Assembly (NCBI RefSeq): GCF_031582965.1
Contig: NZ_CP134049.1
Coordinates: forward strand, 2,232,001 to 2,296,000
Direction of reading: 5' to 3'
DNA length: 64,000 bases
Source of the DNA: Bacillus sp. NEB1478
Lineage (GTDB): Bacteria; Bacillota; Bacilli; Bacillales; Fictibacillaceae
Part shown: piece by piece, positions 3,935 through 61,884 of the stretch
Numbering within the stretch: position 1 is the first letter of the stretch
How the letters are laid out: each line of letters begins with the position of its first letter
Notes under the pieces: model-generated
Told to the model about the DNA's origin: nothing
The model's database searches: none
The model's input: only the letters and a program-made list of their open reading frames with translations
Position numbers and translations under genes: made by a program

Positions 3935-6343
3935 CTACATTAATGTTTGTGCATTTAATTCTGCCGTAATCTGCAGGTCTTTAATGCTTTTATCCTTTTG
4001 AAAATGAGATATAATTTCTTCAAACCACAAGCCTAGCTCTGGTTCATTTTTGTATTTTATCATGACCTGATACCGATATCTATCTTTGATGCGTGCTATT
4101 GGTGAAGTCACAGGGCCAAGCAAAATGCTTTGATTTGACAGTCTGGCAGATAGAAAGCTTGCTGCTTTTTCGCTCGCAGCCACAACTTGCATAAGATCAG
4201 GATGACTGAAAGTTAATAAACCTAAATAGAAAAAGGGTGGATATTGATGGAGTTTTCTCGTTTTCATTTCATAATCGTAAAAAGAAAGGTAATCATGTCT
4301 GGATGCGAGCTGGACACTGTAATGCTCCGTATCATAGCCTTGGATAATTACCTTACCTTCGAGTTCATGCCTTCCTGCTCGGCCGCTGACTTGTGTTAAT
4401 AATTGAAATGTTTTTTCAGAAGCTCTGAAATCAGGAAGATGCAGCATCGTATCAGCTGCTAAGATCCCCACAAGCGTCACTTTTGGAAAATCCAAACCTT
4501 TAGCGATCATTTGTGTTCCTAACAATATATCCGCCTCTTCATTTTCGAATGCAGTTAAGAGGCGTTCATGGCTGCCCTTTTTTGATGTTGTATCAACATC
4601 CATCCTTATTACGCGTGCTTCAGGCAAAACTTTTGCGAGTTCTTCTTCCACTTTTTGTGTACCCGTACCAAAAAAGCGAATATGTTCACTTGTACATGAT
4701 GGACAAGCTGAAGGAATGGTTTCTTGATAACCGCAATAATGACACTTTAATGCTCCATTCCTTTTATGATAAGTAAGAGAGATATCACAATGAGGACATT
4801 CAGCTACATAACCGCAATCACGGCACAAAATAAAAGAAGCATAACCTCTCCGATTTAAAAATAAAACCGTTTGTTCTTGCTTACTTAATCCTTCTTTCAT
4901 CATTTCCATTAAATTGTCCGAAAACATGGACCTATTGCCGTTTTTCAATTCTTCTCGCATGTCTACAATCTTTACTTCAGGCATTGGATTTGAATGCACG
5001 CGTGATCTTAGTTCTGAAAGAATGTATAGCCCCTTTTTAGCACGAGCATATGTTTCTAAAGAGGGTGTCGCACTGCCGAGTACAATCGGACATGAATGGT
5101 ACTTTCCTCTCCAAATGGAAACGTCCCTCGCATGATATCGAGGATGATCTTCTTGTTTATAACTGGATTCATGTTCTTCATCTATTATTACGATTCCCAG
5201 ATTTGTAAAAGGCGCAAAGGCTGCAGAACGTGCTCCTACGACGACTGAAACTTCTTTCCTTAGTATTTTACGCCATTCGTCGTATTTTTCACCAACAGAC
5301 AAACCGCTGTGCAAGACAGCAACTCTGCTTCCAAATCGTGCTTTAAATCGATTTACCATCATTGGTGTAAGGGAAATCTCTGGAACAAGACAAATAGCTT
5401 CCTTTCCTTTATCTAACACCGCTTGAATAGATTGTAGATAGACCTCCGTCTTTCCGCTTCCTGTAACCCCATGGACGAGAATGGTGTCATGCCGATCATT
5501 TTCAATGGAGTTTAAAATCGGCAGTATCGCGCTCTGCTGATTTTCCGTTAACGGTAATGGATCTGTTTGCTTAATATTCCTTCCATTATAAGGGTCTCTA
5601 TAGACTTCTTTTTCCTCAATTTTGACGAATCCTTTTTTAGCTAGTGCTAGGACAGAAGGAAGAGATGCCCCTGTTTCCATTAGTATTTCCTGCATTGAGT
5701 AATACCCAGGCGGACGATGAAGCAATTCTGAAATGACTGCCTTTTGTTTTTCAGCTTTTCTTTCGTTTTCCTCCAGAAATTCTGCAGCTGCTACTTTATT
5801 TAAGATGGTTACGAATTTTATTTTCTTCTTGTTTGCCTTGTCTTTCACTTTATAAATGACATCTAAAGTTCCAGCTTTAACTAATAAAAGCAATTCATTT
5901 AATCGCTCAGGAAAATCTTTCATCACTTCGTTAAAGCTCAATTCATCCTGCTGCGTAAAAGTAACTGCCAGATGTTCGGGAAGCTTTTCCGGTGTCAAAA
6001 TCACAAAGAATTTTTCATATGTTGCTTTCATCGCTGCAGGAAGCATCGCTTGATACGTGGTGATATAAAAACTCAGCGTTTGCTTAGCCAGCCATTGCCC
6101 AAGCTCTATGAGTTCAGTTGTCAGAACAGGCAATGGATCTAAAATTTCAGAGATGTTTTTTAACCCCTTAACGGTTGAAGAAGGTTTTATTTCTAAAATG
6201 AAGCCCTGGAGCTTCCTAGGTCCAAAAGGTACGATGACCCTCATCCCCGGTTCTGCCCACTCTGCGCACTTTTCAGGTACTTTGTAATCGAAAGTTTTGT
6301 TCACACTGCCTGATGGAACATCTACTACGACTGCCGCGATCAT
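3935..6343 (-). CDS. priA: Primosomal replication restart helicase PriA
   Basis: 3'-to-5' DNA helicase that reloads the replisome at stalled forks. The order seen is an N-terminal 3'BD domain (first 110 residues), a winged-helix region, Walker A GVTGSGKTEVY near residue 290, a DEEH Walker B box, and a cysteine-rich zinc region (CRDCGYVAECPHC then CHYCGY and CPSC) inserted in helicase lobe 2. Length is 802 residues, close to B. subtilis PriA. The ATG overlaps the coaBC stop codon by 4 bases, so the two are coupled. Confidence 0.97.
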   Translation of the reverse strand: MIAAVVVDVPSGSVNKTFDYKVPEKCAEWAEPGMRVIVPFGPRKLQGFILEIKPSSTVKGLKNISEILDPLPVLTTELIELGQWLAKQTLSFYITTYQAMLPAAMKATYEKFFVILTPEKLPEHLAVTFTQQDELSFNEVMKDFPERLNELLLLVKAGTLDVIYKVKDKANKKKIKFVTILNKVAAAEFLEENERKAEKQKAVISELLHRPPGYYSMQEILMETGASLPSVLALAKKGFVKIEEKEVYRDPYNGRNIKQTDPLPLTENQQSAILPILNSIENDRHDTILVHGVTGSGKTEVYLQSIQAVLDKGKEAICLVPEISLTPMMVNRFKARFGSRVAVLHSGLSVGEKYDEWRKILRKEVSVVVGARSAAFAPFTNLGIVIIDEEHESSYKQEDHPRYHARDVSIWRGKYHSCPIVLGSATPSLETYARAKKGLYILSELRSRVHSNPMPEVKIVDMREELKNGNRSMFSDNLMEMMKEGLSKQEQTVLFLNRRGYASFILCRDCGYVAECPHCDISLTYHKRNGALKCHYCGYQETIPSACPSCTSEHIRFFGTGTQKVEEELAKVLPEARVIRMDVDTTSKKGSHERLLTAFENEEADILLGTQMIAKGLDFPKVTLVGILAADTMLHLPDFRASEKTFQLLTQVSGRAGRHELEGKVIIQGYDTEHYSVQLASRHDYLSFYDYEMKTRKLHQYPPFFYLGLLTFSHPDLMQVVAASEKAASFLSARLSNQSILLGPVTSPIARIKDRYRYQVMIKYKNEPELGLWFEEIISHFQKDKSIKDLQITAELNAQTLM

Positions 6344-7642: not shown

Positions 7643-7802
7643 GGCTGTCTTCGCAATCTTTGTTGTTTTTGAAAGTAGTTGATCTCCGTTTCAGGATGCT
7701 CACTTTCGATTTTCATTTTCGAGGAGCCTCTCACCTTACTCTCCAATCATGCGAGGCAGTTATAATAATCCCTCAGAAGAAACAATCTTTTAGAAAAGAG
7801 TC
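7643..7802. mobile_element. MITE-like palindromic element, copy A, with 8-bp target duplication
   Basis: A 160-bp protein-less element between rpoZ and coaBC. The left end begins GGCTGTCTTCGCAATCTTTG and the right end, read inward, begins GACTCTTTTCTAAAAGATTG, so the ends are imperfect inverted repeats of about 28 bp. It is flanked by perfect 8-bp direct repeats TAATAAAT at 7635-7642 and 7803-7810, which mark an insertion. Copy A lacks the GC-rich middle found in copies D and E and looks internally deleted. It shares GATTTTCATTTTCGAGGAG with copy C. Confidence 0.85.
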
Positions 7803-37923: not shown

Positions 37924-37970
37924 AAATTCTTATATGTATAAAATAAGCATAGAAATTAGCGGCTGCATTC

Positions 37971-38229
37971 GTAAACTATCATGGTTGAGGGTGGTTGATT
38001 TTTGCTCACACGTGCTCGCTTTACGCGGGGCAAGGTGAAAGACATATAAAAAGCTGCTTCTGTGTCTGCAAGAAAATCCTGTAAAAGCGAGCTTCCTTAT
38101 CGAATGCCTTGCGAGAAGAATACTCAGGTGCTGGCTCGCTGATCCTAGCCGTATTCTCGCAATACACTCCAATCAACATATCAATGATGAGAATGGACAA
38201 TACGAGCTAAAAGCTTTAAGAAAAGAGCC
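37971..38229. mobile_element. MITE-like palindromic element, copy B (degenerate)
   Basis: Starts GGCTGCATTCGTAAAC and ends AAGAAAAGAGCC, matching the termini of the family. The inner GGTTGATTTTTGCTC and CCAATCAACAT arms are recognisable, but the centre has diverged. No target duplication is evident, so it is an old copy. It lies upstream of the spoIIG promoter. Confidence 0.65.
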
Positions 38230-45053: not shown

Positions 45054-45356
45054 AGCTGTTTTTACATACTTTGTTGCTCTTCTTTTGAAAGAGGTTAATT
45101 TCTGCTGCATGGGCTCGCTTTCCGCAGGGTGTGCGGTGAGCCCCCTCCGTACTGCGTACATTGAGAGGCCTCACCTGTCTCACTCATCCTGCAGGACAAG
45201 GAAGGCTTCGGCAGCTTCACATCGCACGAAGAAAATGTGATTTTCATTTTCGAGGAGTCTCGCCACTTCCGCTCCAATTAACTTTTTCCATGAAGCATTT
45301 CTCAAAAATCACTCAATAGCAACAACCTTTTAGAAAAGAGAGTTTAGAAAAGAGCT
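45054..45356. mobile_element. MITE-like palindromic element, copy C
   Basis: Starts AGCTGTTTTTACATACTTTG and ends TTTAGAAAAGAGCT. Inside are GAGGTTAATTTCTGC, GGGCTCGCTTTCCGC, GGTGAGCC and their complements. The right end has a 14-base tandem duplication (TTTAGAAAAGAG twice). The flanking 8-mers AAATAAAC and AAATAATA share six bases, perhaps a decayed duplication. It occupies the position of murG, between spoVE and murB. Confidence 0.7.
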
Positions 45357-51798: not shown

Positions 51799-52021
51799 GG
51801 CTTTTATCGCAAACTTTAATGCTTTTGAAAGAGGTTAATTTCCGCTTCAGTGGCTCGCTTTCCGTGGGGCGTGCGGTGAGCCCACTCTGCGCGTTGCGCC
51901 ATAAGGGGTCTCACCTGTCACACTAATCCCACTGGAGTCTTGCCACCTACGCTCCAATTAACTTTGCAGTGAAGAACTTAACGAAAATCGCTCAAAAGCA
52001 ACAGTCTTTTTAAAAAGAGTC
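51799..52021. mobile_element. MITE-like palindromic element, copy D
   Basis: Starts GGCTTTTATCGCAAACTTTA and ends AAAAAGAGTC. Long complementary arms include GAGGTTAATTTCCGCTTCAG with CTACGCTCCAATTAAC, and a GC-rich middle CGTGCGGTGAGCCC with GTCTCACCTGTCAC. It is about 223 bp, close in size and content to copy E. No clear target duplication. It separates spoVD from murE. Confidence 0.72.
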
Positions 52022-59981: not shown

Positions 59982-60561
59982 CTAAACTTCCAAAATTCGT
60001 TTTAGTACGCCATATGTAATTAACGAAAAATACCCAACAGAAAGGATGAGAAACTGCAAACGCCAATTCAACCTTACTATAGAAAGCTCCACATCATTTC
60101 TCCAAATGAGCATCGTTATAAAAAACAGCCGCTTAAAAACAAAATAATAAGGATCCAATAATAGGTATGACCCCAAATTTCCACAAACAATCTGTTTATC
60201 GAAATAAGTAAGAAAAAAGTTGTTACATCCGTCCCTGCTTCAAAAGCCATTTTTCGTTTTTTTATTTTGGCTGATTTCGTATTCATTGTTGCTTTTGAAA
60301 GTAGTTGATTTCCGTTGCAGGTTGCTCGCTTTCCGCGGGGCAGGCGGTGAGCCACATTCGGACGTTTCACTCTTAAGTGTCTCACCTGCCGGCCTGTCCC
60401 GCAGGAGTCTGGCTACCTTCCACTTCAATCAACTTCCAAAGAAGATGATAAAAATGAGTTATGAAAGCAACAATCTTTTAGAAAAGAGCCTTTATTTTAA
60501 AGATAATTTGATAAACTGCAAAAAACACAATATATGGAATTGTTACGAATGTAGCTATCAC
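59982..60561 (-). pseudogene. DUF3397 membrane protein gene, interrupted by a mobile element and a frameshift
   Basis: Three pieces of one gene lie here. The 5' piece (from a possible GTG at 60559-60561) reads VIATFVTIPYIVFFAVYQII. After element E the frame reads KRKMAFEAGTDVTTFFLLIS and then stops at FLSGCFL. The 3' piece reads FFITMLIWRNDVELS and ends GYFSLITYGVLKRIL. Removing the 222-bp element plus one 8-bp duplication joins the first two in frame (FKIKKRKMAF). Adding one T to the T6 run at 60120-60125 joins the third. The rebuilt protein is 116 residues, like DUF3397 proteins that sit between panE and bshC in other Bacilli. Confidence 0.85.
60269..60490. mobile_element. MITE-like palindromic element, copy E, with 8-bp target duplication, inside DUF3397
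   Basis: A 222-bp element beginning GGCTGATTTCGTATTCATTG and ending TCTTTTAGAAAAGAGCC. The ends are inverted repeats matching at about 20 of 28 positions. Perfect 8-bp direct repeats TTTATTTT flank it (60261-60268 and 60491-60498). The interior is nearly palindromic, with GCGGGGCAGGCGGTGAG facing CTCACCTGCC and CTGTCCCGC. Excision with one repeat restores the host reading frame, which proves insertion. Confidence 0.93.
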
Positions 60562-60586
60562 TCCGCGTAAAAAGGTTGAGAACCTT

Positions 60587-61483
60587 TTATCCTCTCCATT
60601 CCAATCCTTTCACAGCATAATAGGCAAAACGAGAAAACGGTACTGGTTTATTCATACTATTTGCTTGCTTTATAATTTCTCCCGTAATGCTATCAATTTC
60701 AGTTTGTTTCCCACTCTCGATGCTTTTTAGCATGGAAGATCGATTCAAGGAAGTATTTCTGCAAATCGTTAACAATTCCTTCCATAAATCATCTTTCATT
60801 CCGTTCATATTTAAAACATGAATCGTTTCTTCAAATAGATGTTTCATCATCTTATATGCATACCCATTATCTAATAATTGACCATTTGGAATACGAAGCA
60901 TTGCTGTAACAGGGTTGATTGAAGCATTTATAATTAGCTTTATCAACAACATCTTTTCCCAGTTAGATTCCAATGTGACTGGAAATAATTCTACCTTTGA
61001 AAAAATGGATTGCCAATCTAGAGCAAAATTGCCTCTGAATGCTGAAACTTTAACCTTCCCCATCCCAACATGATGGACAGAGGTATAACCCTCTTTCATT
61101 GCACCATGTTCAACAACACCAACGCTTATATTTTCTTGCGGCAAGTTCTTTATCCAGTCAATATGACCCATTCCATTTTGCAGAAACAAGAGCGAAATAT
61201 TATTAAACGTCCTTTGATGTAAAAAGCGCAGGTCTTTAATGGCGTTTTGCGTTACCGTTACAACACAATAGTCTTCAAATCCTGCGTATTCCTCTACTTG
61301 CTTCACTTCTATATGTATGGTTTCCGTATTTCCGAAATTATCAATATATGTTAAACCTGATTGATTTATTGCTTTTGCCTGTTCCAGTGTACGCGTATAA
61401 AGAACCGGTTCATGTTGATTTAATTTAAGAAAATATGAAATTAATAATCCGATGGCTCCTCCGCCAATCACACTTACTCTCAT
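60587..61483 (-). CDS. panE: 2-dehydropantoate 2-reductase family protein
   Basis: NADPH-dependent ketopantoate reductase of pantothenate synthesis, or a close relative. The N-terminal dinucleotide-binding loop is VSVIGGGAIGLLISYFL, the catalytic lysine region is LLIKLIINASINPVTAML near residue 185, and the C-terminal helical domain is complete. The ATG at 61483 has GGAGGT 5 bases upstream. Length is 298. Bacilli often have two such genes, so the substrate is not certain. It overlaps nothing and leads into the broken DUF3397 gene. Confidence 0.88.
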   Translation of the reverse strand: MRVSVIGGGAIGLLISYFLKLNQHEPVLYTRTLEQAKAINQSGLTYIDNFGNTETIHIEVKQVEEYAGFEDYCVVTVTQNAIKDLRFLHQRTFNNISLLFLQNGMGHIDWIKNLPQENISVGVVEHGAMKEGYTSVHHVGMGKVKVSAFRGNFALDWQSIFSKVELFPVTLESNWEKMLLIKLIINASINPVTAMLRIPNGQLLDNGYAYKMMKHLFEETIHVLNMNGMKDDLWKELLTICRNTSLNRSSMLKSIESGKQTEIDSITGEIIKQANSMNKPVPFSRFAYYAVKGLEWRG

Positions 61484-61533: not shown

Positions 61534-61884
61534 AACTGTTATCGCAATTTTTGTTGCTCTTAGAAGTGAATTGATTTCCGTTACGGATGCTCGCAATCCT
61601 CGTGGTGTGCGGTGAGCCTCTACGTCGCTTTGCACCAGCAGAGTCTCTCCTGTCTAGTCTACGTCGGTTAACCCCTCGAGGTCATAAGCTAAATGGTCTT
61701 GAAGGTAAAGAGCGCACTCTTAACCCATTCATTTTATGCTTGCCGGGACTGAGCAAGCCGCCTCCGCTTTATGATAATCCCACTTATTCTAGCCGTAGTC
61801 TCACACCTTGCACTCTAATCAACTGGCCAATGAAGATTATAACCAATATTCGATAAAAGCAACAATCTTTTAGAAAATAGACTA
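61534..61884. mobile_element. MITE-like palindromic element, copy F, with an internal foreign segment
   Basis: The left end resembles the family (CTGTTATCGCAATTTTTGTTG, shown in part) and the right end reads AAAAGCAACAATCTTTTAG. About 130 bases in the middle (roughly 61660-61790), including a CCCTCGAGGTCATAAGC stretch, are not present in copies A-E. This could be a second repeat inserted in the first, or a longer family variant. No clear target duplication. Confidence 0.6.

What the first reader, a model, noticed from the sequence alone, without database searches (positions are those of the whole stretch)
60261..60498. Protein-less transposable element with perfect 8-bp target duplication; excision restores a gene
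A 222-bp palindromic element starts GGCT, ends AGCC, and is flanked by TTTATTTT on both sides. Taking it out with one duplication rejoins DUF3397 codons exactly in frame (FKIKKRKMAF). This defines the element's ends to the base and shows that it moved. GG-starting inverted ends with 8-bp AT-rich duplications are hallmarks of the ISL3 transposase family, so it may be a non-autonomous ISL3-derived MITE (inference).
Basis: partly seen in the sequence, partly recalled or inferred. Interest (0 to 1): 0.85.

Follow-up and report, generated by a model that had tools for sequence, protein, structure and literature searches.

The report
Protein-less jumping element at terminators
A short DNA element without genes jumped into a gene of a soil bacterium; its ends match those of the IS1595 transposon family (not ISL3, as first guessed), its relatives tend to land in the tails of transcription terminators, and its folded core turns up inside other kinds of mobile-element ends in related bacteria.

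Summary
In detail: a 222-bp element (60269-60490) with imperfect inverted ends lies between two exact TTTATTTT copies inside a DUF3397 gene that is uninterrupted there in 15 of 15 congeners searched (Fictibacillus). Two claims change. (1) The ends are not ISL3 ends: no ISL3 transposase was found in the own genome or 17 congeners, while IS1595-family insertion sequences of related genera carry matching ends and make 8-bp duplications. It is a MITE with IS1595-type ends; the own genome holds only a transposase relic. (2) Removal restores the frame only locally, because the gene has a second frame break. Beyond the finding: of 91 members with both ends, 32 have exact 8-bp duplications (0.8% expected) and 53 abut a terminator-like hairpin plus T-tract (11% of control sites); 7 of 17 related ISs do too. 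The roughly 130-bp hairpin core recurs inside two other kinds of ends and without them; a 16-base core word is in 127 of 397 genomes of the order. A new variant of a known kind, with an unexplained, widespread core.

The parts
60261..60268 (.). left copy of the 8-bp target duplication TTTATTTT
   Evidence: read directly; identical to 60491-60498
60269..60490 (+). 222-bp MITE with IS1595-type ends
   Evidence: boundaries from the target duplication and other copies
60269..60292 (+). left terminal inverted repeat; the best IS1595-type IS ends differ at 3 of 24
60467..60490 (-). right terminal inverted repeat; the best IS1595-type IS end (L241) differs at 1 of 24
60304..60433 (+). hairpin core GTTGATT...AATCAAC, found in other families inside other ends or without IS1595-like ends
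60491..60498 (.). right copy of the 8-bp target duplication TTTATTTT
59982..60268 (-). larger (downstream) part of the interrupted DUF3397 gene, with a further frame break
   Evidence: PF11877 match at 60134-60268; alignment with 15 congeners
60491..60590 (-). upstream part of the interrupted DUF3397 gene (start approximate)
   Evidence: alignment with congeners
7643..7802 (+). another family member, 160 bp, TAATAAAT on both sides
37961..38229 (+). another, more diverged member; an A-tract and hairpin follow it
45054..45342 (+). another member, no matching duplication
51799..52021 (+). another member, no matching duplication
61534..61882 (+). another member, with an inner module; no matching duplication

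Best explanation
The element is a MITE: a transposon without genes whose ends are recognised in trans by an IS1595-family transposase. It was inserted into the AT-rich octamer TTTATTTT inside DUF3397 and repair doubled the octamer (insertion shown by the duplication and by the empty site in congeners; the transposase step is inferred from shared ends and from the size and AT-richness of the duplication). The family has many copies in Fictibacillus and tends to lie in T-tracts directly behind terminator-like hairpins, where the 8-bp duplication leaves the hairpin with a T-tract (site bias shown; harmlessness inferred). The DUF3397 copy is one of the minority that is not at such a site, and the gene it hit is otherwise decayed (order of events unknown). 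No intact IS1595-type transposase was found in the sequenced chromosome; identical copies at different sites show that movement was recent, so the transposase was lost or lies outside the assembly (inferred).
For: Ends: consensus of MITE ends (88 of the 91 members; the 3 in the window file were not read in that script) and of 36 ends of 18 IS1595-type ISs agree at 25 of 28 bases on each side. IS ends of L230 and L232, GGCTGTTTTCGTAAACTTTGTTGC, equal the left end of members such as L012 and L072 at 24 of 24; L241, GGCTGTTTTCTAAAAGATTGTTGC, equals the right end of L068 at 24 of 24. IS transposase: NF033547 'IS1595 family transposase' E 2.6e-60 and PF12762; D153, D232, N270 invariant in 19 of 19 aligned proteins, from 21 loci tried. 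12 of 17 ISs with two readable flanks have perfect 8-bp duplications; two Niallia plasmid copies annotated as IS1595 have perfect ones, a Priestia flexa copy one mismatch. A decayed IS1595-type IS with such ends and a perfect duplication lies in congener G007. MITE duplications: 32 of 91 exact. In the 60 alignments listed, all for one 406-bp member, similarity to the ISs lies in the ends only. Recent movement: two own copies 220 of 220 identical with different duplications. Terminators: 53 of 91 against 150 of 1365 controls at dG<=-7; at dG<=-9, 50 of 87 against 18 of 417 tract-matched sites 300-430 bp away.
Against: No intact IS1595-type transposase in the own genome, only a relic at 3055687-3055914 whose subgroup is not determined. 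Only three transposase profiles and one transposase protein were searched, so other families are not excluded. The own left end differs from the nearest IS end at 3 of 24. 5 of 17 ISs lack a perfect duplication. Terminator controls may include coding sites; at dG<=-7 tract-matched sites 30-80 bp away still score 131 of 374 and those at 300-430 bp 89 of 417, against 52 of 87, and selection after insertion could give part of the bias. The distance from hairpin to element did not differ clearly from controls. This copy is not at a terminator.
Confidence: 0.87

Rival explanations
1. ISL3-derived MITE: moved by an ISL3 transposase.
For: GGCTCTTT start and 8-bp AT-rich duplications; some candidate ends near ISL3 transposases also begin GGCTCTTT.
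Against: PF01610 absent in own genome and 17 congeners; overlap with repeat-bearing genomes is one of 41. Three candidate ISL3-locus ends differ at 9-15 of 24.
Confidence: 0.03
2. The terminator bias is only a by-product: insertions in genes are purged and AT-rich intergenic octamers lie near terminators.
For: Duplications are 92% A+T against 65% in flanks; sites 30-80 bp away also score above distant ones.
Against: Tract-matched sites in the same flanks score lower: at dG<=-9, 104 of 374 at 30-80 bp and 18 of 417 at 300-430 bp against 50 of 87; related ISs show it too, 7 of 17, without a control of their own.
Confidence: 0.25
3. The core is a host RNA (attenuator, regulator) that happens to be carried by MITEs.
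For: Covarying stems in 26 cores: 12 of 24 pairs change on both sides, 94.2% of cells paired against 88.7% shuffled, 0 of 500 shuffles as high.
Against: No Rfam match to the element at E<=1; tens of dispersed copies in many genomes; correction between arms of a palindrome can imitate covariation. Transcription was not testable.
Confidence: 0.12

Closest known systems
IS1595 family insertion sequences (with the IS1016 group; ISApl4 as a described member)
   Same: 8-bp, in ISApl4 A/T-rich, duplications; GG ends; DDE_Tnp_IS1595 domain and zinc domain in the IS with the same ends (PMC8101967 and PMC12561309, passages seen)
   Different: the element carries no transposase and shares only its ends with the ISs compared
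Bacterial MITEs such as RUP and the BOX repeats of pneumococcus (review PMC10969869, passages seen)
   Same: short, no genes, inverted ends, high copy, palindromic
   Different: the text of that review holds no mention of Bacillus or IS1595; T-tracts of terminators as preferred sites were not in the passages seen
bcr1 of the Bacillus cereus group and Bhal-1 of B. halodurans (PMC2267715, passages seen)
   Same: dispersed stem-loop repeats of Bacillaceae
   Different: other sizes; sequences were not compared here
Group IIC introns, which insert behind intrinsic terminators (recalled, not looked up)
   Same: target choice
   Different: RNA-based retroelement, unrelated mechanism

Membership tests
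MITE (non-autonomous DNA transposon) | terminal inverted repeats | tested here: met
MITE (non-autonomous DNA transposon) | target duplication of fixed size | tested here: met
   32 of 91 exact at 8 bp, 0 of 91 longer
MITE (non-autonomous DNA transposon) | no transposase gene inside; many dispersed copies | tested here: met
   222 bp; the overlapping ORF matches only DUF3397; copies
MITE (non-autonomous DNA transposon) | ends shared with an autonomous IS | tested here: met
MITE (non-autonomous DNA transposon) | moved in trans by that transposase | not testable with these tools
   needs an assay
IS1595 family (as source of the ends) | partner transposase with DDE_Tnp_IS1595 domain and N-terminal zinc domain | tested here: met
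   NF033547, NF050000, PF12762 over cut-off; PF12760 below its cut-off
IS1595 family (as source of the ends) | 8-bp duplications and GG ends of the partner | tested here: met
   12 of 17 exact
IS1595 family (as source of the ends) | intact partner in the own genome | tested here: not met
   relic only
ISL3 family | ISL3 transposase in host or congeners | tested here: not met
   0 of 18 genus genomes
ISL3 family | end sequence shared beyond GGCTCTTT | tested here: not met
   9-15 of 24 mismatches for three candidate ends
IS256 family | Transposase_mut in host or congeners | tested here: not met
   1 of 18 genus genomes, G009

The most novel reading that the evidence does not exclude
The roughly 130-bp hairpin core is an independent passenger carried by unrelated transposon ends: IS1595 clade A ends (GGCTGTTTTCG), IS1595 clade B ends (GGCTCTGTTAAAG), GGGGCTGTCC ends, and copies without any of these. 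A structured DNA cargo with exchangeable inner modules would thus move between transposon shells across an order of bacteria, perhaps because it makes insertion tolerable or transposition efficient, while the shells favour terminator tails.
Probability: 0.3. Interest if true: 0.8.

Novelty: new variant of a known kind. Interest (0 to 1): 0.55.

Why it matters
It names the likely mobiliser of an abundant repeat family, corrects a family guess that the first bases of the ends suggested, and gives a bacterial DNA transposon group whose natural insertions cluster in terminator T-tracts, a testable way for a parasite to stay harmless. The shared core in different transposon ends asks whether a piece of structured DNA can be a cargo in its own right.

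Tried and rejected
ISL3 (PF01610) and IS256 (PF00872) as mobilisers: in 0 and 1 of 18 genus genomes. Candidate 3.3-kb and 3.9-kb elements bounded by two right-type ends in G005 proved to be pairs of MITEs around host genes. The 406-bp member as query gave no match in plasmid and phage records, and the right end none in viral contigs; the core word gave one viral hit in an unrelated context. The first element finder used a wrong spacing and found 38 elements; it was corrected, which is the one used. In one search the orientation of short fetched loci was unreliable; not used for counts. In one search loci of minus-strand matches were not yet turned; one search repeats the alignment with them turned. 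Element set: 107 loci (best-scoring hits, right-end hits and six more) plus the window, so well-preserved copies are favoured; 94 found, 91 after removing repeats; four more likely orthologous or duplicate sites were dropped (87). Shell counts (126 complete cores: 98 clade A, 2 clade B, 9 GGGGCTGTCC, 17 other) depend on which loci were fetched; four further clade B shells in G027 were seen by eye. Rfam: one sub-threshold match, not in the element. Solved structures: three zinc-finger matches only. Papers: ten searches, seen as listings; none listed a report of this repeat, of IS1595-type MITEs in Bacillaceae, or of terminator targeting by IS1595. Passages only were seen of five papers. The library holds open-licence papers only.

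Full report
Host and place. The window lies in a 3.93-Mb single-contig genome. Its BshC protein is 69% identical to that of Fictibacillus nanhaiensis KCTC 13712, whose contig length equals that of contig 1 of congener G006, so the genus is taken as Fictibacillus. The element sits between a ketopantoate-reductase-like gene and bshC/mraZ, inside a gene of the DUF3397 family.

The observation. TTTATTTT stands on both sides of 60269-60490. The two ends form the only inverted-repeat pair reported in the 601-bp neighbourhood, and the element folds better than every shuffle. In 15 of 15 congeners searched DUF3397 has no insertion at that place and the joined flanks align with it across the site; in G012 the frame differs near the gene's end. 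Identity is 66-69%, so the comparison is between species. The own copy also lacks a codon near the site, has a further in-frame deletion and a second frame break downstream. Intact copies exist in relatives. Which damage came first cannot be told.

The family. The element has 66 matching pieces in the own genome (a lower bound for search depth, 40 of 150 candidates scored, but several pieces can belong to one copy) and matches in 30 of 41 genomes, the own one and 17 of 17 congeners included. The right end alone has 64 hits with up to 3 mismatches in the own genome and none for the reversed pattern; with up to 2 mismatches 28 of 34 genomes of the family have it. In 91 distinct members with both ends, direct repeats peak at 8 bp: 32 exact, 48 with at most one mismatch; mismatched flanks give 0.8% and 3.7%; none is perfect over 9 bp or more. 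The 48 duplications are 92% A+T. Two own copies are identical over 220 bases with different duplications and a third is 99.5% identical: movement was recent.

Who moves it. ISL3 was tested first: PF01610 is in 0 of 18 genus genomes. IS256 (PF00872) is in 1 of 18. IS1595 (PF12762) gave 6 of 41 genomes; two of the six loci, in order-level relatives G029 and G026, had ends like those of the MITE. With the G029 transposase as query, 17 of 34 family genomes and 171 of 397 order genomes match, many by fragments. Of 21 loci inspected with transposases close to it, 18 had a pair of matching ends; 12 of the 17 with both flanks readable have a perfect 8-bp duplication, 5 do not. Ends of L230 and L232 equal the left end of members such as L012 and L072 at 24 of 24 bases, and L241 equals the right end of L068 at 24 of 24. 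Consensus MITE ends agree with the IS consensus at 25 of 28 bases on each side. More distant IS1595 transposases, including those in congeners G012 and G015 and family member G022, have other ends, GGCTCTGTTAAAG or GGCTATGTTAAAG. A decayed IS with the right kind of ends and a perfect duplication is in congener G007. The own genome holds only a relic of about 76 residues. Named copies: two Niallia sp. Man26 plasmids and a Priestia flexa plasmid. In the 60 alignments listed, all for one 406-bp member, similarity to the ISs is confined to the ends. The transposases have invariant D, D and N (19 of 19, both subgroups); that some IS1595 groups use N as third residue is recalled.

Where it lands. 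Many copies sit directly behind a terminator-like hairpin with a T-tract (seen). Scored by one rule for sites and controls, 53 of 91 insertions against 150 of 1365 AT-rich octamers in the same flanks have such a hairpin at dG -7 or better; at -11 it is 41 of 91 against 35 of 1365. With four more sites dropped and controls matched for T/A tracts, at -9 it is 50 of 87, against 104 of 374 at 30-80 bp, 56 of 391 at 80-150 bp, 45 of 440 at 150-300 bp and 18 of 417 at 300-430 bp; at -7 it is 52 of 87, against 131 of 374, 81 of 391, 90 of 440 and 89 of 417. Members with at most one mismatch in the duplication give 29 of 44, the others 23 of 43. Of 17 related ISs 7 qualify. The decline with distance shows that terminators are nearby in general, yet the value at the site is 1.7 to 2 times that at 30-80 bp. 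The spacing between hairpin and element was not clearly different from controls. The 8-bp duplication leaves the hairpin with a T-tract, so termination may survive (inference). The DUF3397 copy has no such hairpin. A large survey reports IS1595 members over-represented between genes (PMC9208149, passage seen).

The core. Inside the ends lies a core of about 130 bp, GTTGATT...AATCAAC, with nested stems. In the own genome it comes with optional inner modules; of 40 both-ended own elements found, 16 have the plain core, 19 a core with one or two of three modules, and 5 no recognisable core. In G027 the core is inside GGCTCTGTTAAAG-like ends, in G023 it occurs both inside the usual ends and (8 copies fetched) inside GGGGCTGTCC ends, and in G034 and G028 without IS1595-like ends in the loci seen. 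The word CTCGCTTTCCGCGGGG occurs in 127 of 397 genomes and 43 of 135 genera of the order, with no hit of the control word in the table, and core-like sequence is on plasmids of Bacillus badius, Priestia, Peribacillus and others. Some hits of that word, such as L299-L301, lie in other contexts. In 26 diverse cores 12 of 24 pairs change on both sides and 94.2% of cells pair, above all 500 shuffles and all slid versions; the number of further pair types is not above the shuffles (110 of 500 as high). This supports a kept structure but not which molecule carries it, because correction between arms of a palindrome has the same effect. What the core is for remains unexplained.

Verdict. A real, recently mobile MITE family with IS1595-type ends, an excess of insertions at terminator-like sites, and a widespread structured core found in several kinds of transposon ends. 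The listings of ten paper searches hold no description of it, but only an open-licence library was searched.

Noticed in passing
window 7643-7802, 37961-38229, 45054-45342, 51799-52021, 61534-61882: Five more members of the same repeat family in this 64-kb window, one with an exact duplication TAATAAAT.
   Followed up: partly
L289-L296 (G023): The same core inside ends GGGGCTGTCC...GGACAGCCCC; with flanking T-tracts these ends look like a two-way terminator or another transposon's ends. Family not tested.
   Followed up: partly
L137-L156, L080-L090 (own genome): Three exchangeable inner modules (roughly 60, 125 and 120 bp, by eye) within the core; one of them is also seen in G028 of another family (L270, L276).
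   Followed up: partly
L006, L007, L009: An element at what looks like the same site in three congeners with the same duplication, probably inherited from a common ancestor.
   Followed up: no
L193, L196, L330, L331: The IS1595-type elements carry passenger ORFs beside the transposase (a DinB-family gene in one Niallia copy).
   Followed up: no
L150, element ending at 4501: An end pair of under 60 bp without core, apparently an internal-deletion form.
   Followed up: no
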